IMG/VR virus record: IMGVR_UViG_3300043773_000599
Coordinates: 1-30,214 of that record
Strand: one strand, 5' to 3'
DNA: 30,214 nt
Source: a virus
Positions 3,151 to 28,541 of this stretch are shown piece by piece. A model generated the notes under the pieces. That model was not told where the DNA came from. It did not search any database and saw only the letters and a program-made list of their open reading frames with translations. The number at the start of each line of letters is the position of its first letter. The stretch's first letter is position 1. The position numbers were made by a program, and so were the translations under genes.

Positions 3151-6100
3151 ATGGCACTGCCCACCGAACAACAGGTCAATCAAAGCATGACAGTAGGGGC
3201 TTATCAGCCCCCTTTGACTTTGTCGCCGGACATCGCAACCAAGTCGCCGCTTGAGAAGGCTGCCTACTACAACACCCTTCTTGGGCAAGGCTATTCTGAC
3301 GCGCAGATCCGTCAAGCAGCGGGGACTCAGACGGACACGGACTGGTCTGCCCTTCAAGGGCTTGCGTCCGGGCTTCAGCCGAAGACTCCTGCGCCTCCCT
3401 CTGCTTCAAGTGTGAATGCGCTCTCTGCGGCACCTGCTGCATCATCGTCTTTCAACGGCATGGTGCTGAATAATCTGTATCAGCAGATGCTAGGCCGTGC
3501 GCCAGACGAAAGCGGGTTCAACTTCTGGTTGAACGCCATGGAAAACCAAGGCTACACACCGACGATGGTTGCCTCGGAATTCATGCGTTCGCCGGAGTAT
3601 CAATCTCGATTTGCCGCTCCCGCTTCTGCAGCCGATTCTACTGTTGCAACTGCGGCCACAAGCCAAGCGCCTGCTGCAAGTGGGGCGCTTTCCACTGTTG
3701 GGAATGCGGCAACGAGTTCCGTTGATTCGGCTGTTGGCACAGGTGCCGCTGCTGATCAAAACGCTATAGACACTGGGTTGACCTCAACTCAGGCGCCTGC
3801 GACTGGCTCACCGGAATGGTTCAAGAACTATATGTATGCCGGTGGTGCAAACGATGCGATTGCAACTCAGCGAGGTCTTGAGTATGCAGAACAGCAGGGA
3901 TGGACTCCTGCTCAAACGGTTTCTGAATTTAATCGCGCACTTGGCACTCAGTTCAACATCAACGACTTCTATCGCGCAAGTGGCGATGATGCGCCGAACA
4001 CCACGACGGTGTTTGGTGACTCCATCAGTTCCGTTCTTGGCTACCGCATGGACGGGAGCGAGGACACATCTCGTGGCAACTCTCTAGAAGGTGTTCTGTC
4101 CGACTACACGGGCGGTGTTGTAAACAATGTCGCAACCGGTGGGCAGACATCTCAAGACGCACTGACCGGCAACACAGGCTATGGTAGTTTTGAGAACTAC
4201 ATCACCACCAACCGGCCAGATCAGGTGATCCTCCGTTATGGCGCAGCAGACGCCATCAAACTGGGAAATGCCAATCAGTCCCTGAGCAACATCGAGCAGA
4301 TGATCCAGATTGCCCAACGCAACGGATCAACGCCTGTTCTTGTCGGCGTCTCTCCGTTCTTCGGCGGCGCAGACTCGATTGGCGGAAATATTGCCGGTTA
4401 CTTGACGAGAGAGAGCGCAACGGTCGCAGACCAGATCAACGCAGGAATTGAGCAACTTGCTCAGAAGTATGGGCTGCAGTTCGTCAATGTCCGCGATGTA
4501 AGCATTCCGGCAGGTTCTCTGCTTGACGGTGTTCATCAAAATGCCGAACTTGGTCGCCTGATGGCAGACCGAATCGGATCGGCACTGAGTCAAACAGGCA
4601 CAGAAAGGCGCACGGTAACCGGAACCGGTACAACAATAGGTGAGACCGGCGCACTCGCACAAGCGGCTGCCCCCGCGCCTTCACCTGCTCCTGCTCCCTC
4701 TCCCGCTCCTGCACCTGCTCCCGCGCCTGCTGCGAGTACCCTAGAACAAGCAGCCGTTCCTGCTGCGGGCGGTTTGCCAACTGCCGCCCCTGCGGCAGCA
4801 TCTGCTGTTCAGCAGGCCGCATCTGCTTCTCCTCAGGCGCTCTTCACGACCCTGCTTGGCGCCGATCCAAACATCGCCGACCAACTGCGTGCGAACTACA
4901 ACCAAGCATTCAATCAGGGCGAAGGCTCAACCTTCAACGACCCCGGAATGCAGGTTGGTGAGTACACCTTGCGGTCGATGCCGATCTCGTATGACTTCGC
5001 AGGAGAGCGTCAGGGCGGTGGATTCCAAGCCACCAAGACTGCAACGAATGACCGCAACCTGCCGCTTGAGACGACCTACACCTACGATGACGGCGGTGCG
5101 ATAACCGGTGCTGAGGTTCGCTACTTCACGGGTGGTGATAGTGGTGTGGTCATCCGTTTTGATGGCCAGGGTAACAAGATCGACGAAGAGGGCTTTGACT
5201 ATTCGGAGTCTTGGAAAGGCGCTGTTGCTCCTCTAGTTTCGATGGCGGCCATGGCCTTTGCGGGCCCCATGGCCAAGAGTCTTGCCGCAACGATCGGCGG
5301 CGGCAGCGCGACGCTTGCTTCCAACATCGCTGCAAATGCGATCGTTCGTGGCGGTCTTGGGGCTGCCCAGGCAGGACTGATGGGCGGTGATGTACTGAAA
5401 GGTGCATTGACTGGTGCTGCTACTGGCGCCCTCGGAGCGGGTGGCGCAAGCCTTGCCAATACGGCCGCTGCAGAGACGCTTAATCTCACCGGAAGTCAGG
5501 TGGCTGCAGACGCCGTGCGCGGAGCGGTTCAAAGTGGCCTGAATGCTGTTCCTGGTGTTATCGCCTCAGGCGGAGATCTGAGCGACCTTGCTCGTGCAGG
5601 CTTGGTTGGAGGCATTACTTCTGGCACCGGAAGTGCAATCACCTCTGCCCTTGAGGGAACTGGGATCATTGGGGGACAAGTTTCCGCGGGACTTCGACTT
5701 GCTCAAGAGTTGAGTTCCGGGAAGCCAAACCTTTCTGCAATTGCTGATGCTGCGGCGGGACTTGTTAACAACCCCAACGCCACGGTTGCGGCTAAGGCGG
5801 TCGGTCTCTTGAACACCATTCAAAAGGCGGGCTCCAATCCTGCTGCCTGGATGGGCGTGATGGAAGCGGCGAGCCAGTTGTCTTCTGCTGTTGATCGAGC
5901 ATCTTTGCCGAGCGTGATGTCTGACAAGGAGGCAAACGCATTCCTTACTGCTAAACGCGCAGGAGCAAGCGACGAAGAGGCTCTGGCCACCGCTCGTGCG
6001 GCTGTTGGCGGAGATGCCATCGATCGCGCTACTGCTCGTGCAAAAGGTCTCCCCATCACTCAGATGGCCATCCCTGAGATCGAGATCTTCGATGAGGAGT

Positions 6101-9100
6101 GGGGAGATCTGACTCAAGCGCAGAAGGATGCTGCCAATCGGATGACCCTGAACATCGGGGCAGATAAGGCTTCTACGCCACAAGAGGCGGCCGCTCTGGC
6201 TAGGTCTCAGGGCTATGGAATGTTCACCTTTGGTGGCAACCGGTACACCCTGGGCGCAAGTGCCGATCAGATCTTGGCGCAAGATCCCAACTATGTGCCT
6301 CCGGCCGCCACAACCGGCGCAGCCGCTACAACCGGAGCAACTGGTGCAGCCAAGGTCGTTCCGGGTTGGGGCCGCGAGGGTAACCTGATTCAGGGCTTCA
6401 ACAACGCAACCGTTGGAACCACCAATCAAGCGCGTGCTGCTGAGATTCTTCGGGAAGTCTTCGGTGATGCGGTTGACTGGGTTGACCAGAACGCCATCAA
6501 TGCTGCGGCTTCGTATGTCTACGCCAATCGGGAAGACCTGCTGAGGCAGGATCTTGCTCAAGGCAATGTGCTTGGCATCGGAACTCGCGGACCTACCGCT
6601 CAGGACATCACAAGCGTCCGTAAAGACTACGCCGTTGAAGGCGCACGGATTGCCGGTCCTGCTGAGGTTGAAGGCGCCGATATCGGTTACGACGCCAACG
6701 GTGTTCCGATTGCTGTGGTGAAGACTGCCGGAGCCACGGAAGGCAAGAGGATGACGAAGGAAGAGCGTGACCGCTACGACTTCGAGCAGGGCCTGGCAGT
6801 CGCCCGGAATCAAACCGATCCCTTTACTGGGCAGTCTTTGGCCATCAATCCGGTCACCGGTAAAGAGATGACCTTCGAGGACTACCAAGCAAGCGACACC
6901 TTGCGGGAGACGATCCGAGGTCTTGCCGCTCCCGTGATGAAGGGGGTTGGTGAACTCGGTCAACTTGCCGGATATGCAACCGGCAACGAGGCGCTGACTC
7001 AAGCGGCCGCTAACTTAGAGGCTCAGGGTCGCTCAATCACCCCAGAAGTCGTTCGACAGGGAACTGCAAACCTGATCAACGACATTGATAACGCCGAAGG
7101 CATCACCGGTAAGGGTGCTGCGATCGTCAGGGCAGTCATTGACCGTCCGTGGCAGACGCTTGCTGCCGTTGGTGATCTTGCCGGTACCGAACTGGTGCAG
7201 GAAATCCTGCCGTTCGGCGCATCCTTCGCTGCGGGACGGGCTGTATCTGGCGCGATGAAGGCCAAGTTTGGCGAGATGATCTCTCAGCGTGCCGGAACCA
7301 TTGCAGGTGTGACGGCTAACGCAACTTCTGACGCTGTAGAGGCGGGATTGCAGTCTGCACAGCAGGTCTACAACGAACTGCGCGGACAGGGCTTCGGGCA
7401 CGAAAGAGCCTCTGAGATGGCTCTGAAAGCAGGTATTGCATCTGCTGCAGTGGAGACGGTTGCCTCAGTCGTGGGCGAGGGCCCGCTGATGAACTCCCTG
7501 GTGAGGGGTGTTCCTGGTAGTGTCGTGAGAACGACGGCCAGAGAAGGTATTTCTGAGTTCCCGGCGGGTTACTTGCAAACGGCCATCGGTGATGTTGCGA
7601 CCAATCGCCTTGGAACCTTCGATCCGAATGCTGCCCTGACTGGCGGATACCTTGAGACCCTGGCGGGCGGTCCTACTGCGGGTGTGATCCAAGCCGGTGG
7701 CAACTTGAACCTGGGTACAGAAGTCACCTCAGGAATAACCGCCGGAACCTCTACTGGAGGAGTGGATACCGGCGCGACCACTACCCCTGCAGCGACTGCC
7801 GGGACGACTGGCGTAACAGCCACTGGAGCGACTCAAGGTGCCGACACGACATCCATAGTCAATAACTATGTGACCACGGTTCTGCAGGGAGGAGATGCTT
7901 CTCAGGCTGCAAGCACTTCTGTTGGCAGCGTTATCAACAACGCCGTGACTTCTGGCGGTGATGTTTCTCAAGCGGCTTCTACGGCTGTTGGATCGATCAT
8001 CAACTCTGCAGCCTCTACTGGTGCAAATGTCGCGTCTGTCACCTCCTCCTCGGTGTCTGGTGCGGTCTCCTCTGCCGTGACTTCTGGTGCGGATGTCGCG
8101 GCAGTTACTCAAGGCGCAGTCTCATCTGCGGTGACTTCTGCTGTCGGATCTGGGCTTGATGTCACATCTGCCGTGAACTCGGCAGTTGGTGGCGCCGTGA
8201 CGAGCGCAGCGACTGCCGGAGGGAATGTTGCTGCGACTGTGACCAGTGCAGTTGGTTCTGCCGTGACATCTGCTGCGACATCTGGTGCTGATGTGACTGC
8301 AGCGGTGACAAGTGCGGTTGGTTCCGCCGTGACATCGGCAGTAACTTCCGGCTCTGATGTCGCGAGCGCAGTAACTTCAGCGGTTGGATCTGCTGTGACT
8401 TCTGCCGTCACAAGCGGCTCTGACGCTACAGCGGCCGTCACTAACGCCGTGTCTTCCTCTGTGTCGTCTGCAGTGACTTCTGCAGCCTCCACTGGAGCAG
8501 ATGTCGCGTCGACCATCACATCTTCTGTCGGGGCGTCTGTAGGCTCTGCGGTGACCTCTGCAGTTAACTCTGGGGCTGAAGCAACTGCGGCGGTTTCGAG
8601 CGCAGTCACATCTTCCGTATCCTCTGCGGTCAACTCTGCCGTCAACACCGGCGCGGATGTAGGAACAGCCGTGACATCGGCTGTGTCTTCCTCCGTAACC
8701 TCTGCAGTGACTTCTGCGGTCAACTCGGGTGTTGATGCATCTACTGCAATCAACTCCTCGGTAACGAGCGCAGTCAACTCTGCGGTCACCTCTGCTGTTA
8801 ACTCCGGTGCGGATGTGAGCACTGCAGTCACGAGCGCGGTCAACAGCGCCGTGAACTCTGCCGTGACATCCGCCGTTAACACGGGAACGAACGTCAGCAC
8901 TGCGATTGACACGTCCGTGAACTCTGCCGTTTCTACTGCTGTGAATGCTGCGGTTAATACGGGAGCGGATGTCAATACCGCCGTCAACACCGCGGTCAAC
9001 TCTGCTGTCACTTCTGCGGTTAACACAGCCACAAACACCGGCACGGATGTAAACACGGCCGTTACCGCCGCGGTGAATGCCGCAGTAAATGCGGCTGTCA

Positions 9101-10026
9101 ACACCGGCGTCAGCACCTCTACTGCAGTAAATGCCGCTGTAAACGCGGCGGTGAGTGTTGGAATAGCAACATCTGTTGCTGTCGATCTTGTCAATCAAGC
9201 GTTGACTTCAGGGGGCGGCACGCCTCCCGGAACTCCGCCTGGAACCCCTCCTGGTGAGCCAACCGTCGCGTCTAGCGTCCAGACGACAACCGCTCCAACA
9301 TCCACCACCAGAACAACGAGGCCAACCACTCCAAGCCTTCCGAGTGCTGCGTCGGCCGCTGCTTTGCCTGCCTTCTTCGGAGGCGGTCAGGAGATGGGGC
9401 GTCTTGCGCCCCAGATGCTCGAATCCCGAGTCACCCAAGGTTACGTTGATCCTCTTGCCCAGGTACGTCAGGCGCAAGAACAGTTTGAAAGAGATGCCAT
9501 GATGCAGAACATCGATCCCCGACTGATGCAGATCCTGTCCGAGCGGATGGGCACCCCTCAAGGAGGCTTGGGTCAGGCAGCCAACGAGCAGCCGTACTAC
9601 TCCTACGGCCAGGAGGACTCCATCGACGACATCATGGGCGGATCTCTGCCGGAAGCGGTGAACTACGCCAAGGGCGGGTACGTCGAGCCTCTGCAGGCCA
9701 AAGAGGGCGGAATGGCTCTACCCCTCCTGGCCAAGGCCGGTGGACTTCCAACCCACAAGGGTCGGGAGGACTTCAAGGGCGGGAAGCACGTCGCCGGCGA
9801 GGGAGATGGCCAGTCCGACGACATCCCTGCCTGGCTCGCTGACGGGGAGTTTGTCTTCCCGGCGGACGTGGTTTCTGCTCTGGGGAACGGTTCTACCAAG
9901 GCCGGAACCGACAAGTTGTACGAGATGATGCACGCCATCCGGAAGCGGGCTAGGTCAAAGGGGCCAAAAGATCTTCCGCCTGCCGCTTTGAAATCTCCGC
10001 TTGACTACTTAAAATCGAAGCGGTAA
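3151..10026 (+). CDS. giant modular virion protein: DUF4214 + SGNH hydrolase + Gly-zipper + repeats
   Basis: This is a 2291-residue protein starting 1 base after the previous stop. In order it shows: a DUF4214-type segment (101-154, LYQQMLGRAPDESGFNFWLN); an SGNH/GDSL hydrolase-like domain (285-480) with FGDS (Ser291), the block II Gly near 330, block III as GAAD (364-367) instead of GxND, and DGVH (Asp459, His462); a Pro/Ala linker near 510-530; Ala/Gly-rich hydrophobic stretches about 690-900 and 1340-1500 of the kind seen in ejection proteins; a Ser/Val/Ala/Thr repeat region (1563-2020); PPGT repeats; and a conserved end with DDIPAWLADGEFVFPADVV. That end is common in large structural proteins of aquatic podophages. 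It probably enters the host envelope or acts as a tape-measure or ejection protein, with an esterase or deacetylase activity on surface glycans. The role is inferred; the domain calls come from motifs. Confidence 0.65.
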   Translation: MALPTEQQVNQSMTVGAYQPPLTLSPDIATKSPLEKAAYYNTLLGQGYSDAQIRQAAGTQTDTDWSALQGLASGLQPKTPAPPSASSVNALSAAPAASSSFNGMVLNNLYQQMLGRAPDESGFNFWLNAMENQGYTPTMVASEFMRSPEYQSRFAAPASAADSTVATAATSQAPAASGALSTVGNAATSSVDSAVGTGAAADQNAIDTGLTSTQAPATGSPEWFKNYMYAGGANDAIATQRGLEYAEQQGWTPAQTVSEFNRALGTQFNINDFYRASGDDAPNTTTVFGDSISSVLGYRMDGSEDTSRGNSLEGVLSDYTGGVVNNVATGGQTSQDALTGNTGYGSFENYITTNRPDQVILRYGAADAIKLGNANQSLSNIEQMIQIAQRNGSTPVLVGVSPFFGGADSIGGNIAGYLTRESATVADQINAGIEQLAQKYGLQFVNVRDVSIPAGSLLDGVHQNAELGRLMADRIGSALSQTGTERRTVTGTGTTIGETGALAQAAAPAPSPAPAPSPAPAPAPAPAASTLEQAAVPAAGGLPTAAPAAASAVQQAASASPQALFTTLLGADPNIADQLRANYNQAFNQGEGSTFNDPGMQVGEYTLRSMPISYDFAGERQGGGFQATKTATNDRNLPLETTYTYDDGGAITGAEVRYFTGGDSGVVIRFDGQGNKIDEEGFDYSESWKGAVAPLVSMAAMAFAGPMAKSLAATIGGGSATLASNIAANAIVRGGLGAAQAGLMGGDVLKGALTGAATGALGAGGASLANTAAAETLNLTGSQVAADAVRGAVQSGLNAVPGVIASGGDLSDLARAGLVGGITSGTGSAITSALEGTGIIGGQVSAGLRLAQELSSGKPNLSAIADAAAGLVNNPNATVAAKAVGLLNTIQKAGSNPAAWMGVMEAASQLSSAVDRASLPSVMSDKEANAFLTAKRAGASDEEALATARAAVGGDAIDRATARAKGLPITQMAIPEIEIFDEEWGDLTQAQKDAANRMTLNIGADKASTPQEAAALARSQGYGMFTFGGNRYTLGASADQILAQDPNYVPPAATTGAAATTGATGAAKVVPGWGREGNLIQGFNNATVGTTNQARAAEILREVFGDAVDWVDQNAINAAASYVYANREDLLRQDLAQGNVLGIGTRGPTAQDITSVRKDYAVEGARIAGPAEVEGADIGYDANGVPIAVVKTAGATEGKRMTKEERDRYDFEQGLAVARNQTDPFTGQSLAINPVTGKEMTFEDYQASDTLRETIRGLAAPVMKGVGELGQLAGYATGNEALTQAAANLEAQGRSITPEVVRQGTANLINDIDNAEGITGKGAAIVRAVIDRPWQTLAAVGDLAGTELVQEILPFGASFAAGRAVSGAMKAKFGEMISQRAGTIAGVTANATSDAVEAGLQSAQQVYNELRGQGFGHERASEMALKAGIASAAVETVASVVGEGPLMNSLVRGVPGSVVRTTAREGISEFPAGYLQTAIGDVATNRLGTFDPNAALTGGYLETLAGGPTAGVIQAGGNLNLGTEVTSGITAGTSTGGVDTGATTTPAATAGTTGVTATGATQGADTTSIVNNYVTTVLQGGDASQAASTSVGSVINNAVTSGGDVSQAASTAVGSIINSAASTGANVASVTSSSVSGAVSSAVTSGADVAAVTQGAVSSAVTSAVGSGLDVTSAVNSAVGGAVTSAATAGGNVAATVTSAVGSAVTSAATSGADVTAAVTSAVGSAVTSAVTSGSDVASAVTSAVGSAVTSAVTSGSDATAAVTNAVSSSVSSAVTSAASTGADVASTITSSVGASVGSAVTSAVNSGAEATAAVSSAVTSSVSSAVNSAVNTGADVGTAVTSAVSSSVTSAVTSAVNSGVDASTAINSSVTSAVNSAVTSAVNSGADVSTAVTSAVNSAVNSAVTSAVNTGTNVSTAIDTSVNSAVSTAVNAAVNTGADVNTAVNTAVNSAVTSAVNTATNTGTDVNTAVTAAVNAAVNAAVNTGVSTSTAVNAAVNAAVSVGIATSVAVDLVNQALTSGGGTPPGTPPGTPPGEPTVASSVQTTTAPTSTTRTTRPTTPSLPSAASAAALPAFFGGGQEMGRLAPQMLESRVTQGYVDPLAQVRQAQEQFERDAMMQNIDPRLMQILSERMGTPQGGLGQAANEQPYYSYGQEDSIDDIMGGSLPEAVNYAKGGYVEPLQAKEGGMALPLLAKAGGLPTHKGREDFKGGKHVAGEGDGQSDDIPAWLADGEFVFPADVVSALGNGSTKAGTDKLYEMMHAIRKRARSKGPKDLPPAALKSPLDYLKSKR
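7837..9210 (+). repeat. 22/26-residue low-complexity repeats (SAVT tetrads between G-x-D-V turns)
   Basis: Residues 1563-2020 of the giant protein consist of units that open with G(A/S/T)DV and continue with Ser-Ala-Val-Thr/Asn tetrads. After a 17-residue leader the units are 22 residues long eight times, then 26 residues eight times, then 22, 18 and a tail. The difference is one tetrad. Apart from the Asp/Glu near the start of each unit there are almost no charged residues. Synonymous codons vary freely between units, so the repeats are old and kept at protein level. Confidence 0.9.
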
Positions 10027-20245: not shown

Positions 20246-20759
20246 ACTGTTCGAAGACGAGACCATCTGGCTTGCCCGGATGCGAAAGAACTGGCAGGAG
20301 TCGATCAAGAGCGGCTCCGCATACTGCCCCTGCTGCGAGAGAAGCGGCCGGATCAACAAGTACAGCCTCACCAAGACCCTGGTGCTGACCCTGCGGTGGA
20401 TCATGGTCCACGGCACAGACGACGGGTGGGTCAACGTCCAGAAGAGAGCCCCGCGGTGGGTGATGCGGAGCAAGAACTACTCGCTCCTGGAGCACTGGGG
20501 GTTCGTCGAGAGCAAGAAGTTCCGCTCAGGCGTCTGGCGCGTCACCCCCAAAGGGGCTTCCTTCGTCCATGGCCACATCTCCGAGCCCATGGCTGTGTAC
20601 ACCTACGACAACAAGGTCATCGCCCGCGAGTCCACAGAGACGACTTTCCGCGGCTGTTTTGACAAAAACTTTGACTTCGAAGCCATGATGTCCGAGTCTT
20701 ACGACTGGGCCAACGCGGTTCAAGAGCGCCAACCCAAACCCAAGAGGAGCAAGGCATGA
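20235..20759 (+). CDS. conserved phage protein with CPCC zinc half-site
   Basis: This is a 174-residue protein starting at ATG 20235 (MQVELFEDETIWLARMRKNW). Cys31, Cys33 and Cys34 (YCPCC) lead into a segment GRINKYSLTKTLVLTLRWIM and then WVMRSKNYSLLEHWGFVESK, with VWRVTPKGASFVHG after it. This order, a Cys knuckle followed by a winged-helix-like region, is shared by a broad phage family of unknown function. AAAGGAAAG precedes the start. It overlaps the genes on both sides. A DNA-binding role is plausible. Confidence 0.65.
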   Translation: MQVELFEDETIWLARMRKNWQESIKSGSAYCPCCERSGRINKYSLTKTLVLTLRWIMVHGTDDGWVNVQKRAPRWVMRSKNYSLLEHWGFVESKKFRSGVWRVTPKGASFVHGHISEPMAVYTYDNKVIARESTETTFRGCFDKNFDFEAMMSESYDWANAVQERQPKPKRSKA

Positions 20760-21043
20760 CCGACCTGACCGACTTCCAGAAGAACTTTCTACTCGGCCGC
20801 GGGGCCGGACAGACCCTGTACACCGAGAAGGAGTTCGAGGAGCGCCTAGCCCAAGCCAAGGCCGAAATCATGGCCATCGCCATCCAAACCTCCAAGCAGG
20901 CGATCCAGATCGAACGCCGAGCCTGCGCAGAACTCGTTTTAAGGCTCGCAAGCGAGGAGGATGAGGGTGAGGTATCAACCGCGCTAAAAAACGCCGCTAT
21001 GGCCGTTTTAAGGCGGATTCCGGGGCAGTTTGATGGCGAGTAG
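20756..21043 (+). CDS. small phage protein, unknown
   Basis: This is a 95-residue protein, MTDLTDFQKNFLLGRGAGQT, then helices such as FEERLAQAKAEIMAIAIQTS and IERRACAELVLRLASEEDEG. ATG overlaps the previous stop (ATGA). The region IERRACAELV is a common element of small early phage proteins. It is probably an all-helical soluble protein and overlaps the following gene by 11 bases. Confidence 0.65.
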   Translation: MTDLTDFQKNFLLGRGAGQTLYTEKEFEERLAQAKAEIMAIAIQTSKQAIQIERRACAELVLRLASEEDEGEVSTALKNAAMAVLRRIPGQFDGE

Positions 21044-21353
21044 TCTCTCCCCAACCCAACGAAGCCTCGCTTTTTTGCGGGAACAGGGGTATTTGGTGTC
21101 AATCGTGGAGCGTTGGAACCCCCATGCCCGGATTCGGCAAGACCTCTGGGGATGGTGCGACCTCCTGGCCATCCGCAAGGGGGAGGTTCTGGCGGTGCAG
21201 GTCACGGCGTCTGCCGTTTCTGCCCGGATCAAGAAGATCCAAGAGTCGGAAACCATCGCCGCGGTCAGGGATGCGGGTATCCGGGTGGAGGTGCATGGAC
21301 ATCGGAAGAACTCTAAGGGAAAATATGTCATGCGTATCGTTGACATCTCCTAG
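21033..21353 (+). CDS. PD-(D/E)XK-like nuclease domain protein with altered active site
   Basis: This is a 106-residue protein. LSPTQRSLAFLREQGYLVSI, then WNPHARIRQDLWGWCDLLAI and EVLAVQVTASAVSARIKKIQ, follows the core of small restriction-like nucleases (alpha-beta-beta-beta-alpha). Asp43 sits on the second strand, but the strand that normally carries (D/E)xK reads Gln56-Val-Thr58, so activity is uncertain. Related phage proteins often have this QVT variant. The start could be TTG 21030, but the ATG at 21033 is preferred. Its last 15 residues resemble the end of the next gene. Confidence 0.65.
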   Translation: MASSLSPTQRSLAFLREQGYLVSIVERWNPHARIRQDLWGWCDLLAIRKGEVLAVQVTASAVSARIKKIQESETIAAVRDAGIRVEVHGHRKNSKGKYVMRIVDIS

Positions 21354-21361
21354 GAGGAATC

Positions 21362-21823
21362 ATGAAATGGGCCGATGTTCCTTGGGCTACGAACTACGAG
21401 GTATCTGAACTTGGATTGGTCAGAAGGAAGCAACACACAGGTTGGCATCAACTCTATGGAGAAAGGCGTTTTTCTGAAAGGCCATTGAAGCCAATGAAGA
21501 ACGCAGACGGATACATCAGGGTCAAGATTAAAAAAAGGCTAGTCTTTGTTCACATCTTGGTGTTAGAGGCGTTCGTTGGGCCGAAGCCCGTAGGAATGCA
21601 ATGCTGTCACAACAACAATGTTCGGGACGACAACCGACTGGTCAATCTAAGGTGGGACACGCCAAAGAACAACGTCCATGACAGGAGGTTCCATGGCACC
21701 TATCAATACGATGAGCGCAACCCAAACTGGAAGCACGGCAACAGTTATAAGAGACAAAAACGACTCCAAGAAGAAGCCAACAGCCAGGGAAGGTATGTTC
21801 TCAGGGTTGAGGACATCTCTTGA
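21362..21823 (+). CDS. NUMOD4-HNH homing endonuclease
   Basis: This is a 153-residue protein. Residues 1-22 (KWADVPWATNYEVSELGLVR) form a NUMOD4-type motif. GYIRVKIKKR leads into an HNH_3-type core: VHILVLEAF (His64), CCHNN (His83), NRLVNLRW (Asn91, Asn95) and NN (103-104). Such free-standing endonucleases cut a target site and spread between phages by repair. The gene looks more AT-rich than its neighbours and has an independent strong ribosome site (TAGGAGGAATC). The last 15 residues (from 139) copy the end of the preceding nuclease-like gene, which suggests insertion at its 3' end. Confidence 0.85.
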   Translation: MKWADVPWATNYEVSELGLVRRKQHTGWHQLYGERRFSERPLKPMKNADGYIRVKIKKRLVFVHILVLEAFVGPKPVGMQCCHNNNVRDDNRLVNLRWDTPKNNVHDRRFHGTYQYDERNPNWKHGNSYKRQKRLQEEANSQGRYVLRVEDIS

Positions 21824-21850
21824 CTGGCCATGCGGTGGGAAGAAGACGGT

Positions 21851-21943
21851 ATGGAAGACGTGGGGCAGGTGCTGCTGATCCTTCTGCTGATCTTCGTCGT
21901 CCTGATCCCGGCAGTCATCATCTGGCTGCTGTTCAACGACTGA
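21851..21943 (+). CDS. 30-residue single-helix membrane peptide
   Basis: MEDVGQVLLILLLIFVVLIP followed by AVIIWLLFND is almost wholly a transmembrane helix. An in-frame ATG at 21830 would add 7 residues but lacks a ribosome site; GGGAAG lies about 10 bases before 21851. It fills the gap between the HNH gene and the next gene. Tiny membrane peptides are common in phage accessory regions; no role can be named. Confidence 0.55.
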   Translation: MEDVGQVLLILLLIFVVLIPAVIIWLLFND

Positions 21944-21991
21944 AGTTTGCCCTGTATGCGGTATGTGCCCTGGCGGTTTTGAGGGAATGGG

Positions 21992-22501
21992 ATGAGGAAG
22001 CGCAGCAAGTACAAGCCAAAGGGAACAAACCCCTCGGCACATCTGATGGCCATGCAAGGGGCGGCAAGGCTGACCACCACCGATGTCCTGAGGTTCATAG
22101 CCCCGCTTGACGCCGCGATCGAAGCCGCAAGGCAGGCCAAGGCAACGAAGCAGAACTGGCAGGCGGTCTTCAACGCCATCAACCTGATCGAGGCCCTGGT
22201 GGAGATGAAGGTCGCAAGGGACGAAGGTGGGGCGATAGACGCCCTGCAGCAGGCGGTGATCAGTGCTCTGGATCGATTGAAGGAGACAGGAAGCAAGACC
22301 CTCAAGGCTCAGGAAATCAGCGCCCTGATGGACCTCCTGGGGCTGTACTCGGAACTCCTGGCGGGGATCACCCACAGCGAACTGTTCGACGCGCAGGAGA
22401 AGGTAAGCAGAAGGATCATCCGGGTTCTAGCGCAGGGCCCGAACGGCAAGGATGTTTTGTTAAAGGTAACCGGAGAAAACTATGAGCGACAAGATCATTG
22501 A
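21992..22501 (+). CDS. conserved phage protein, helical, unknown
   Basis: This is a 169-residue protein. The basic start MRKRSKYKPKGTNPSAHLMA is widely shared by phage proteins of this region. The remainder is helical: DVLRFIAPLDAAIEAARQAK, NWQAVFNAINLIEALVEMKV and ALMDLLGLYSELLAGITHSE. It ends overlapping the next gene by 20 bases. The basic N-terminus could contact nucleic acid. No enzymatic motif is present. Confidence 0.65.
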   Translation: MRKRSKYKPKGTNPSAHLMAMQGAARLTTTDVLRFIAPLDAAIEAARQAKATKQNWQAVFNAINLIEALVEMKVARDEGGAIDALQQAVISALDRLKETGSKTLKAQEISALMDLLGLYSELLAGITHSELFDAQEKVSRRIIRVLAQGPNGKDVLLKVTGENYERQDH

Positions 22502-22826
22502 CCCAAACGACGCGATCGACTTCATGATCGCCAACTCGAAGAAGTACGCCCAGGCCAAGGCCAACCGGACGTACCTTGAGGAGTACCGCAAGACCATGAA
22601 GGCCGAACTGTGCAAGGAAGCCCTGACGCACGGGTTCGAGGCGGTCAACGCGCAGGAGAGGGAGGCATACAGCCACCCGGACTACAAGCAGCACCTCCTG
22701 GCCATCAAGGCCGCGATCGAGGAGGAAGAGCGGATGCGGTGGCTCATGGTGGCGGCGCAGGCAAGGATCGATGTGTGGCGTTCCCTTGAGAGTTCTGCAA
22801 GGGCGCAGGTGAAGAACACGCTATGA
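22482..22826 (+). CDS. conserved phage protein, helical (DNA replication region)
   Basis: This is a 114-residue protein. ANSKKYAQAKANRTYLEEYR, then KTMKAELCKEA, AQEREAYSHPDYKQHLLAIK and RWLMVAAQARIDVWRSLESS, gives the pattern of a family found beside Ref- or NinG-like nucleases in many phages (AQE.AYS.pxY...L..A...E...Rw...AAQ..i..WR). It is all helical, charged and likely oligomeric. GGAG precedes the ATG by 7 bases. A role near recombination is suggested by its neighbour only. Confidence 0.7.
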   Translation: MSDKIIDPNDAIDFMIANSKKYAQAKANRTYLEEYRKTMKAELCKEALTHGFEAVNAQEREAYSHPDYKQHLLAIKAAIEEEERMRWLMVAAQARIDVWRSLESSARAQVKNTL

Positions 22827-23116
22827 CAACGATCGCCGAGCGCAAGCACATGAGTAGAGTGGCCGATCTAGGCTGCTCTGTCTGCCGCAGAATGGGCTAT
22901 CCGGGGACACCAAGCGAATTGCACCACCCTAGATCCGGTGTCGGCATGGCCAAGAGGGCAAGCCACTTCGATGTCATCCCCCTGTGTCCCGAACACCACA
23001 GAGGAAAGACTGGGGTACACGGGTTAGGTACGAAGGGCTTCCCCAAGCATTGGGGCTTCACAGAGCAGGATCTCCTTGAGGACACGAAGGCTCTTTTAAT
23101 TCCGAGTGAAAGGTAG
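22823..23116 (+). CDS. Ref-like RecA-dependent HNH nuclease
   Basis: This is a 97-residue protein. RVADLGCSVCRRMGYPGTPS, then ELHHPRSGVGMAKRASHFDV, IPLCPEHHRGKTGVHGLGT and FPKHWGFTEQDLL, matches the Ref (recombination enhancement function) family first known from phage P1, a nuclease that cuts DNA at RecA-made D-loops. Cys18, Cys21, His34/35, Cys55 and His58/59 are the metal-binding and catalytic positions expected. It overlaps the previous gene by 4 bases (ATGA) and is the last gene before a new promoter. Family confidence is high; dependence on host RecA is taken from the P1 protein. Confidence 0.85.
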   Translation: MTTIAERKHMSRVADLGCSVCRRMGYPGTPSELHHPRSGVGMAKRASHFDVIPLCPEHHRGKTGVHGLGTKGFPKHWGFTEQDLLEDTKALLIPSER

Positions 23117-26292: not shown

Positions 26293-26862
26293 ATGCCACG
26301 GAAAGCCACCAAAACCGCCGCAGAGCCTTCAAAAGCCCCTGACCAAGGGGTAGATACCACCCAGGCCGCGGAAACCCCTCAAGAGCCCAAGAAGATGGGC
26401 CGTCCCTCCAAGTACAACCCTGAGATCGCCCAGAAGATGTGCGAACTCCTAAGCGAGGGAGTGCCACTCAGGGAAATCTGCCGTATGGACGGTATGCCGT
26501 ATTGGCGGACGGTGTATCTGTGGATGGCTCAGGACGAAGAACTTTCTGCACACATCGCACGCGCACGGGAAGCCGGATACGACGCTATGGCTGAGGAATG
26601 CCTGCTGATTGCCGACAATCCCCAGTACGGCGAGAAGCAGGTTATGTCCGACCAGGGCGGCTCCACGACGGTTGAGGATATGTTGGGCCACCGGAAACTC
26701 CGGATCGAGACCCGGCTGAAACTCTTGGCCAAGTGGAACCCGAAGAAGTACGGGGACAAGGTGCAGGTGGGCGGAGATGCTGAGAATCCCCTGAAGGTTC
26801 AGACGGACCTGACCATCTTCGATACCGTCCTGAAGGGCATAGAGCAGTCCCGCCGTGGATGA
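26293..26862 (+). CDS. terS: terminase small subunit, Sf6-like
   Basis: This is a 189-residue protein. After a disordered N-terminus (1-33) it has GRPSKYNPEIAQKMCELLSE, then GVPLREICRMDGMPYWRTVY and LWMAQDEELSAHIARAREAG, the helix-turn-helix and following helices of Sf6-type small terminases. RKLRIETRLKLLAKWNPKKY follows, the conserved segment before the C-terminal oligomerisation part. It recognises the packaging site and hands DNA to the large subunit, whose gene overlaps its end by 8 bases. The ribosome site is weak. Confidence 0.9.
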   Translation: MPRKATKTAAEPSKAPDQGVDTTQAAETPQEPKKMGRPSKYNPEIAQKMCELLSEGVPLREICRMDGMPYWRTVYLWMAQDEELSAHIARAREAGYDAMAEECLLIADNPQYGEKQVMSDQGGSTTVEDMLGHRKLRIETRLKLLAKWNPKKYGDKVQVGGDAENPLKVQTDLTIFDTVLKGIEQSRRG

Positions 26863-28270
26863 ACTTGTCGCCGTCCTGAAGGACGAGGAGGTTCGGGAGA
26901 AGTTCAAGCGCCTCCCGGCTGACAGACAAGCCGCCTTCGCCTGGAGGGCGGGATGGCTCACCAAGGCTCACAAGCACCAGATCCTGCCTGACGGGGACTG
27001 GTGGAGCATCTGGCTACTCCTGGCAGGCCGTGGAGCCGGGAAGACCCGTACCGCTGCAGAGCAGATCGGATGGTGGGCCTGGGAGACTCCTGGCACCCGG
27101 TGGCTCGTGGCTGCGCCGACCTCCGCGGACGTTCGGGCTACCTGCTTCGAGGGGGATTCTGGTCTGATCGCTGTGATCCCCAACATCCTGATCGCGGACT
27201 ACAACCGGGCGTACCACGAGATCAAACTCACCAACGGCTCACTTATTAAGGGCATCCCTGCCTCAGAGCCGGAACGCTTCCGCGGTGGCCAGTGGCACGG
27301 TGCATGGTGTGACGAGTTGGCCGCCTGGGACTACCTGCAGGACGCCTGGGACCAGATCATGTTCTCGGTGCGCCTGGGCAAGCACACCCGCATCCTGGCC
27401 ACCACGACTCCGAAGCCTAAGGACTTGATCATCGACCTCATCGGCCGGGATGGGGACGACGTACAGGTCACGACAGCGAGCACTTACTCCAACCTGGACA
27501 ACCTTGCTCCGTCCTTTCAGAAGCAGATCCTGCAGTACGAGGGGACAAAACTCGGCCGCCAGGAGATCTACGCTGAGATCATCGACCCGGAAGAGGGTGG
27601 TATCGTCAACCGGGACTGGTTCCGTCTCTGGCCTGCAGACAAGCCCATCCCCAAACTGGATTTCGTCGTCCAGTCCTACGACTGCGCCTTCACCGAGAAG
27701 GCCCAGAACGATCCGACGGCCGCCATCACCTTCGGAGTCTTCCGCCAGGAGGACGGCCCTGGAAGCGTCCTGATCATCGACTGTTGGCAGGACCGCCTGC
27801 AGTACCCGGATCTCCGGCCCAAGGTCATCGACGAGTACGAGACCGTCTTCGGTGAGGGCAAGGACAGAAAGCGGGTAGATCTCGTCCTGGTGGAGGACAA
27901 AGCCGCGGGCATCTCCCTGATCCAAGACCTGCAGAGGGCCCATATCCCTGTCAGGGCCTACAACCCCGGCAGGGCGGACAAGGTCCAACGCCTGTCCATC
28001 GTGGCCAACATCATCCGAGCCGGGAGAGTCTGGGTTCCCGAGAGCAGCGTCAGGAAGGGATACGTTCGTGACTGGGCGGAGGGCATGATCTCTCAAGTGT
28101 GTTCTTTCCCCAACACCGACCACGATGACTTCTGCGACGCCATGTCACAGGCCCTGCGATACCTTCGAGATGCCGGGTTTCTGAACATCGATCCGATCCC
28201 CGACGAACTGGATGAGGACGACTACATCGATGCAGGGCAGCGCAGGAAAGTCAACCCATACGCCGAATGA
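26855..28270 (+). CDS. terL: terminase large subunit
   Basis: This is a 471-residue protein. The N-terminal ATPase shows Walker A GRGAGKT (58-64), Walker B WCDE (Asp153, Glu154) and coupling motif TTTPKP (183-188). The RNase H-like nuclease shows Asp276 (SYDCAF), Glu347/Asp348 (VLVEDKAAG) and DDFCDAM (424-430). It cuts concatemers and pumps DNA into the prohead at the portal. The start is GTG at 26855, within the end of the small subunit gene. The C-terminal tail DYIDAGQRRKVNPYAE (456-471) is repeated at the end of the next small protein. Confidence 0.95.
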   Translation: MDELVAVLKDEEVREKFKRLPADRQAAFAWRAGWLTKAHKHQILPDGDWWSIWLLLAGRGAGKTRTAAEQIGWWAWETPGTRWLVAAPTSADVRATCFEGDSGLIAVIPNILIADYNRAYHEIKLTNGSLIKGIPASEPERFRGGQWHGAWCDELAAWDYLQDAWDQIMFSVRLGKHTRILATTTPKPKDLIIDLIGRDGDDVQVTTASTYSNLDNLAPSFQKQILQYEGTKLGRQEIYAEIIDPEEGGIVNRDWFRLWPADKPIPKLDFVVQSYDCAFTEKAQNDPTAAITFGVFRQEDGPGSVLIIDCWQDRLQYPDLRPKVIDEYETVFGEGKDRKRVDLVLVEDKAAGISLIQDLQRAHIPVRAYNPGRADKVQRLSIVANIIRAGRVWVPESSVRKGYVRDWAEGMISQVCSFPNTDHDDFCDAMSQALRYLRDAGFLNIDPIPDELDEDDYIDAGQRRKVNPYAE

Positions 28271-28280
28271 AGGGGAAACC

Positions 28281-28541
28281 GTGATCCATTTCAAGAAAGA
28301 GGGCGACTACTTCAAACTGGGCCTGAACCTGTACAGGGCGCCGGGTGGGTTCGTGGCCATGTGGGTGTGGTTTGACTTCGCCAAGTGCGAGACATTCTGG
28401 GCCCGCCTGCGCCTACGCCTGAACCGCAGTCCTCGCATTCTGTGGTCGGTGAAGCGGATCAACATCATTGAGAACTACATTCCCAAGCACGACCACATCG
28501 ACGCCGGACAACGGAAAAGGGAAAACCCGTATGCGATCTGA
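28281..28541 (+). CDS. 86-residue protein ending in a copy of the terminase C-terminal tail
   Basis: The start is GTG at 28281 behind AAGGGGAAA, 10 bases after the large terminase stop. The body (residues 1-65: VIHFKKEGDYFKLGLNLYRA, then APGGFVAMWVWFDFAKCETF and ARLRLRLNRSPRILWSVKRI) contains a short hydrophobic aromatic stretch and a basic helix. Residues 71-86, DHIDAGQRKRENPYAI, match the last 16 residues of the terminase at 11 positions. Eight of those 11 codons differ synonymously. No known family is recognised for the body. The tail could compete with the terminase for its partner or reflect an old insertion at the gene end. Confidence 0.75.
   Translation: MIHFKKEGDYFKLGLNLYRAPGGFVAMWVWFDFAKCETFWARLRLRLNRSPRILWSVKRINIIENYIPKHDHIDAGQRKRENPYAI

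What the first reader, a model, noticed from the sequence alone, without database searches (positions are those of the whole stretch)
21306..21823. HNH endonuclease ends with a copy of the C-terminus of its upstream neighbour
The nuclease-like gene ends KNSKGKYVMRIVDIS and the HNH gene ends ANSQGRYVLRVEDIS, nine of 15 residues identical with several synonymous changes. This looks like a homing gene that entered near the 3' end of the nuclease-like gene and kept, at its own end, the tail of another allele, while the resident gene kept its tail. It is the same arrangement as at the terminase, so two events in one genome share one logic.
Basis: partly seen in the sequence, partly recalled or inferred. 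Interest (0 to 1): 0.65.

Follow-up and report, generated by a model that had tools for sequence, protein, structure and literature searches.

The report
HNH gene that re-caps its target
A DNA-cutting phage gene sits inside the end of a neighbouring gene and brings a rewritten copy of that gene's last codons, so the neighbour stays whole while its original ending is left stranded behind the nuclease gene.

Summary
Confirmed, with one correction. Gene A (21033-21353, Hjc-like small nuclease) ends KNSKGKYVMRIVDIS and the HNH gene (21362-21823, I-HmuI-like) ends ANSQGRYVLRVEDIS. In IMG/VR relatives without the HNH gene, the gene A tail and the DNA after it match the window's SECOND copy (43/48 nt to L003; own tail 30/48), although the gene A body is 96% identical. 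The same tail+HNH unit sits in backgrounds whose gene A bodies differ by 27% (window, L006). In six insert/empty pairs both borders fall at one point, the Gly-Trp-Arg codons. Trp becomes His in inserts: of 19 contigs with the His-type tail in all IMG/VR, 18 carry the HNH and one another gene. The insert needs at least 7 gains or losses on the gene A tree. Best reading: a free-standing homing cassette with a recoded rescue tail, known from fungal mitochondria; I found no phage report. The terminase shows the same DNA logic with a non-nuclease insert.

The parts
21033..21353 (+). gene A: 106-aa small nuclease-like protein (Hjc-like, PD-(D/E)XK-type fold) that is the target of the insertion
   Evidence: ORF; no Pfam or PHROG hit; weak Foldseek matches to Holliday junction resolvase Hjc, best 4tkd_C E 9.6e-4, TM 0.47; 288 of 303 candidate stretches in IMG/VR encode relatives, 80 kept
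21293..21353 (+). imported (recoded) tail of gene A, codons from about His-Gly-His to the stop
   Evidence: 30/48 nt to nearest empty allele L003 while the body is 96.0%; last 51 nt identical to L001 and 1 nt different from L006
21352..21357 (+). AGGAGG Shine-Dalgarno-like motif overlapping the gene A stop; travels with the insert
   Evidence: sequence; same in L001 and L006
21362..21778 (+). HNH homing endonuclease gene proper: NUMOD4 + HNH_3, I-HmuI-like, without the C-terminal part of I-HmuI
   Evidence: Pfam HNH_3 9.5e-10, NUMOD4 1.5e-7; only PDB relative I-HmuI 1u3e residues 3-120 of 174, E 1.4e-14; dN/dS 0.06 against L006 over 139 codons
21779..21823 (+). native tail of gene A, left behind the insert and read in frame as the HNH C-terminus
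   Evidence: 43/48 nt to the tail of empty allele L003; followed by the DNA that follows gene A in L003; in L001 a stop precedes it, in L006 it lies in another frame
26855..28270 (+). terminase large subunit, second gene with the same arrangement
   Evidence: Pfam Terminase_6N/6C
28234..28270 (+). imported tail of the terminase
   Evidence: 32/48 nt to empty alleles L250/L251
28281..28493 (+). inserted ORF X, truncated; full-length relatives (102-106 aa) follow the terminase in many other phages; not a nuclease by any search here
   Evidence: 18 relatives, context; no Pfam/PHROG hit
28494..28541 (+). native terminase tail behind X, in frame with it
   Evidence: 46/48 nt to L250/L251; next 200 nt 193/200 to L251

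Best explanation
A free-standing HNH homing cassette that carries a recoded 3' end of its target gene. The mobile unit is [last ~17 codons of gene A in presumably cleavage-proof spelling, with Trp changed to His] + stop/ribosome site + HNH ORF. The HNH enzyme cuts empty gene A alleles at the Gly-Trp-Arg codons. Repair copies the unit from the donor: the left side pairs through the gene A body, and the right side joins at or near the break, through the tail copy of the donor or through microhomology. Gene A is thus rebuilt with the imported tail, and its own tail is pushed behind the HNH gene, where it is read through, stopped before, or out of frame. Shown: order and origin of the tails, fixed insertion point, movement between backgrounds, Trp/His association, selection on the HNH protein. 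Inferred: that this HNH makes the cut, where exactly it cuts, that the His spelling resists it, and the repair route.
For: Body/tail mosaic in five HNH cases plus L041: body 92-98% (L041 99.2%) to the nearest empty allele, own tail 30-36 of 48, second copy 38-48 of 48 (window, L166, L167, L171, L173, L041). Control: empty pairs with bodies in the 0.90-1.00 bins have mean tail identity 0.95-0.97. Both borders at one site, six pairs. Tail+HNH shared by window and L006 (HNH 343/417 nt) with gene A body 187/255, and no blastn match beyond gene A-HNH in L006's 6.3 kb. His-type tail pattern over IMG/VR: 19 contigs, 18 with the HNH directly behind (contigs matched by name; L341). Insert label needs 9 changes on the gene A body tree (7 forced), His goes with it in 6-7 of 7 independent pairs, 0 opposite, p 0.016-0.031. 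HNH dN/dS 0.03-0.07 between diverged pairs. The tail is the last strand of gene A in the model, so its loss would probably break the protein. The fused tail in the HNH model has pLDDT ~50 against 91-98 for residues 1-100.
Against: 8 of 18 distinct HNH-bearing loci show no second tail copy (L026, L054, L056, L087, L162, L177, L181, L182). L087 has the HNH but keeps Trp (GWS). L168/L170, L172, L174, L176 have no near empty relative (body 68-75%), so the origin of their tails is not settled. L041 and L064 have the tail copy with a non-nuclease gene, and the terminase has it with X, so the layout can arise without a nuclease in the insert. The window HNH lacks the I-HmuI C-terminal part and has Cys where I-HmuI has the catalytic Asp, so activity is not certain. 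No cleavage was tested.
Confidence: 0.75

Rival explanations
1. Nuclease-independent gene capture: recombination or template switching between related phages enters a donor gene by homology, copies its tail and its downstream neighbour, and returns to the recipient by microhomology. The HNH is just the neighbour that happened to be copied.
For: Terminase: cargo X directly follows the terminase in 11 of the 16 relatives examined, here truncated after KHD and joined at ACGAC to the native tail. L041: donor-type gene as in L064 joined to the L120 tail across a shared 10-nt AGAACTCAAA.
Against: In gene A the cargo is HNH in 18 of 19 His-type contigs, always at one site, with 7-9 gains or losses on the tree; a neutral process has no reason to choose one gene or to change Trp to His.
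Confidence: 0.2
2. The 15-residue end belongs to the HNH protein itself (an HNH C-terminal motif), and the likeness to gene A is shared ancestry of a domain or chance.
For: The tail is in frame in the window, L083, L084 and L171-L176.
Against: 0 of 63 HNH relatives elsewhere carry their neighbour's tail; L001 stops before it, L006 has it in another frame; DNA behind it is the native gene A flank.
Confidence: 0.02
3. Tandem duplication of the gene A end within one genome, followed by HNH insertion between the copies.
For: Two copies flank the HNH gene.
Against: The copies are only 27/48 identical, and the upstream one matches an allele found with the same HNH in another background; 12 of 101 loci have a second copy, all with a gene between the copies.
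Confidence: 0.03

Closest known systems
Mobile endonuclease ORFs (mORFs) in fungal mitochondria: Allomyces macrogynus atp6 and Glomus sp. atp6, atp9, cox2, nad3 (PMC3630166, passages read)
   Same: Same order: gene core, inserted foreign C-terminal end, endonuclease ORF, native C-terminal end left behind; the native end matches close relatives, the inserted end does not; insertion attributed to the endonuclease.
   Different: LAGLIDADG or GIY-YIG endonucleases in mitochondrial genes; here HNH (I-HmuI-like) in tailed phages, a tail of only ~17 codons, many independent cases, and a marker residue (Trp to His) at the insertion point.
Intronless homing of free-standing phage endonucleases (T4 seg and mob genes; review PMC2988022, passages read)
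   Same: Free-standing endonuclease gene near its presumed target, spread by break repair with co-conversion; junctions at microhomology are reported there for illegitimate repair.
   Different: The passages read describe insertion between genes with distant cut sites; the word stem 'duplicat' does not occur in that review. Here the insertion lies inside the target gene and brings its 3' end.
I-HmuI of Bacillus phage SPO1 (PDB 1u3e; phage name recalled)
   Same: NUMOD4/HNH core, E 1.4e-14.
   Different: I-HmuI is intron-encoded (recalled) and has a further C-terminal region (121-174) missing here.
Engineered home-and-rescue (HomeR) gene drives (PMC7968924, abstract and outline read)
   Same: Works like it: homing cassette placed in its target gene with an encoded rescue of that gene.
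   Different: Synthetic, Cas9 based, in flies; only an analogy of design.

Membership tests
I-HmuI-like HNH homing endonucleases | NUMOD4 plus HNH_3 domains | tested here: met
   23 of 23 members of A4 match both
I-HmuI-like HNH homing endonucleases | catalytic Asp-His ... Asn (D74, H75, N96 of I-HmuI, from PMC12724721 passages) | tested here: inconclusive
   His and Asn aligned, Asp replaced by Cys, which is nearly invariant in this set
I-HmuI-like HNH homing endonucleases | C-terminal DNA-binding domain | tested here: not met
   match ends at I-HmuI residue 120 of 174; longer C-terminal ends occur in L181 and L162
I-HmuI-like HNH homing endonucleases | site-specific nicking or cutting | not testable with these tools
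   needs an enzyme assay
intronless homing elements | presence/absence polymorphism between closely related alleles with movement between backgrounds | tested here: met
intronless homing elements | insert-bearing allele resistant to its own enzyme | tested here: inconclusive
   Trp codon at the insertion point is His in inserts; resistance itself untested
intronless homing elements | biased inheritance in mixed infection | not testable with these tools
   needs co-infection
mORF type: foreign C-terminus + endonuclease + native C-terminus | inserted end joined to the gene core, native end behind the endonuclease | tested here: met
mORF type: foreign C-terminus + endonuclease + native C-terminus | native end still detectable in all carriers | tested here: not met
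   10 of 18 distinct HNH carriers

The most novel reading that the evidence does not exclude
Natural home-and-rescue elements are common in tailed phages: a nuclease gene breaks a gene near its 3' end, supplies a cut-proof replacement end, and keeps the native end as the right-hand homology arm for the next move. The same break-and-re-cap route also carries passenger genes without a nuclease (L041, L064, terminase X), making gene 3' ends general landing sites for new phage genes.
Probability: 0.35. Interest if true: 0.75.

Novelty: new variant of a known kind. Interest (0 to 1): 0.62.

Why it matters
It gives a replicated set of natural insertions in which the donor tail, the native tail, the insertion point and the presumed cut-site residue can all be read from sequence. 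That makes a testable phage system for how a free-standing endonuclease can live inside a gene without an intron or intein, and it is a natural counterpart of engineered rescue drives. It also offers a mechanism for gene gain at gene ends in phages, and warns annotators that 'HNH C-termini' can be debris of the neighbouring gene.

Tried and rejected
Annotated phages: no DNA match to 20756-22500; gene A relatives in 5 records at 50-54% identity; in the five regions read none has an HNH gene annotated directly behind gene A (Kintu has one in front). Genome contigs: 2 distant HNH relatives only. The first screen of HNH loci chose one upstream ORF per locus and missed known positives, so it was replaced; its stray hit (L167, wrong ORF) was dropped. 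Unrelated HNH genes near gene A in L046, L144 (about 195 nt off) and L058 (direct) carry no tail copy and keep Trp. The idea that the tail is an HNH motif was rejected. L064 was first counted as empty; it holds a decayed second copy behind a non-nuclease gene, and it is one of the 87 empties and of the empties of the tree. In one search the L251 terminase tail was offset by 3 nt; one search gives the right counts. In one search the printed body comparison of L041 with L064 was out of register and is not used. Literature: searches; searches (no paper; PMC3630166 the only relevant paper) found no phage report of tail replacement plus native tail; PMC10448857 and PMC12724721 were read by passages only. 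The library lacks most subscription papers, so 'not found' is not 'not known'.

Full report
What is there. The window is a 30.2 kb virus record. Gene A (21033-21353) is a 106-aa protein without Pfam or PHROG match; its AlphaFold model (pLDDT 75.8) resembles, weakly, archaeal Holliday junction resolvase Hjc (best E 9.6e-4, TM 0.47). Eight bases behind its stop begins an HNH gene (21362-21823) with NUMOD4 and HNH_3, whose only solved relative found is I-HmuI. The two ORFs end KNSKGKYVMRIVDIS and ANSQGRYVLRVEDIS: 9 of 15 residues, 27 of 48 nt.

Which tail is native. The nearest relative without the HNH gene, L003, is 96.0% identical to the window over 249 nt of gene A body. Its tail matches the window's second copy at 43/48 nt and the window's gene A tail at only 30/48, and the DNA after its stop continues as the DNA after the window's HNH gene. 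The same holds for L167/L006 (body 98.0% to L019; own tail 33/48, second copy 46/48), L171 (97.2% to L157; 33/48, 47/48), L173 (97.2% to L157; 33/48, 46/48), L166/L001 (92.4% to L009; 31/48, 38/48) and, with a non-HNH gene, L041 (99.2% to L120; 36/48, 48/48). For L168, L170, L172, L174 and L176 the nearest empty body is only 68-75% identical and the comparison does not decide. Among empty alleles in the 0.90-1.00 body bins, tails average 0.95-0.97 identity, so the tail is not simply fast-evolving.

It moves as a unit. The last 51 nt of gene A in the window are identical to L001 and one base different from L006, while the gene A bodies of window and L006 share 187 of 255 nt. The HNH genes of window and L006 share 343 of 417 nt, and blastn finds no likeness between the 3.7 kb around the window's insert and L006 outside gene A-HNH. 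L171 and L173 share HNH end and tail but have different DNA behind the tail stop. On a tree of gene A bodies (228 nt, 102 rows; 18 with insert, 77 counted as empty, 7 too short to tell) the insert needs 9 changes, 7 forced by well supported branches. One of the 77, L064, was later seen to hold a decayed copy.

One insertion point and a marker residue. In six insert/empty pairs the left border falls at or within a few codons of the His-Gly codons and the right border at the Lys-Asn codons, 43-53 nt before the stop; what is lost is about TGG-CGN. Empty alleles read HGWR; inserts read HGHR. Of 104 distinct gene A loci, His: 17 with HNH, 1 without (L041); Trp: 74 without, 4 with some HNH (L087 of this family; L046, L058, L144 of others), 8 too short (this set includes loci found through the HNH gene). 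A pattern scan for the His-type tail alone in the whole of IMG/VR gave 19 contigs: 18 have this HNH directly behind (17 matched by contig name to loci, and L341) and the other is L041. In independent pairs on the tree His goes with the insert in 6-7 of 7, never the other way (sign test p 0.016-0.031). The simplest reading is that the Trp codon lies in the cut site and the imported tail is proof against the enzyme.

The fused end is debris, the enzyme is kept. In the window the native tail is in frame with the HNH gene, in L001 a stop precedes it, in L006 and L168/L170 it lies in another frame. 10 of 18 distinct HNH carriers have a detectable copy; 8 have none. In the HNH model the core is confident (91-98 over residues 1-100) and the last 13 residues are not (about 50). 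Of 63 HNH relatives elsewhere, 60 with a testable upstream ORF, none carries its neighbour's tail. The HNH reading frame is under selection: dN/dS 0.06 (window-L006), 0.03 (L171-L172), 0.07 (L168-L170). The window HNH lacks the C-terminal part of I-HmuI; L181 and L162 have longer ends. Cys stands where I-HmuI has Asp, so activity needs a test.

Not only HNH. L041 has the recoded tail, a small non-nuclease gene otherwise found behind gene A in L064/L099, and then a native tail identical to L120; donor-type and recipient sequences share 10 nt at the right junction. L064 itself keeps a decayed second tail. No HNH of this family was found in L041's 26.3 kb record. In the window the terminase has the same layout: second copy 46/48 to empty alleles L250/L251, own tail 32/48, next 200 nt 193/200. 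The inserted ORF X has 18 relatives, 16 of them examined: in 11 (L352-L358, L360-L362, L369) X directly follows the terminase, in 5 (L359, L363, L366-L368) it does not; L364 and L365 were not examined. In the window X is cut short and joined at ACGAC. So the end product can arise without a nuclease in the insert; a break made by another phage's enzyme, or plain recombination, would do. L249, on the same contig as L001, has a terminase without the insert, so the two events in the window are separate.

Mechanism. Most likely: cut at TGG-CGN of an empty allele; the left end pairs with the donor gene A, the imported tail and the HNH gene are copied, and the right end is rejoined through the donor's tail copy or by microhomology. 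Illegitimate repair with microhomology junctions is described for T4 introns (PMC2988022, passages). Cutting, site, resistance and repair route are inferred.

Comparison. The same architecture is known in fungal mitochondria (PMC3630166, passages; it cites the Allomyces atp6 case, which I otherwise only recall). Searches found no phage case. It works like engineered home-and-rescue drives (PMC7968924, abstract and outline). I file it as a new variant of free-standing (intronless) homing.

Noticed in passing
28234-28541: Terminase tail replaced and native tail left behind a truncated non-nuclease ORF X, in frame; X is full length behind terminases of other phages.
   Followed up: yes
L041:1648-1965: Same layout at gene A with a small non-nuclease gene as insert, native tail 48/48 to empty L120; donor-type gene in L064.
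   Followed up: yes
L064, about 210 nt behind gene A (which ends at 3306): Decayed second gene A tail behind the same passenger gene, on a Trp-type allele.
   Followed up: partly
L046, L058, L144 behind gene A: HNH genes of other families also sit next to gene A (0-195 nt), without tail copies: the spot may be a general landing site.
   Followed up: partly
L171 and L173, behind the tail stop: Same HNH end and tail but different next genes, so recombination right after the tail seems frequent.
   Followed up: partly
22823-23116: Small ORF matching the RecA-dependent nuclease family (RecA_dep_nuc, E 1.1e-7).
   Followed up: no
3151-10026: 2291-aa ORF with a long Ala/Thr/Ser/Val-rich repetitive stretch (TSAVNSAV-like).
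   Followed up: no
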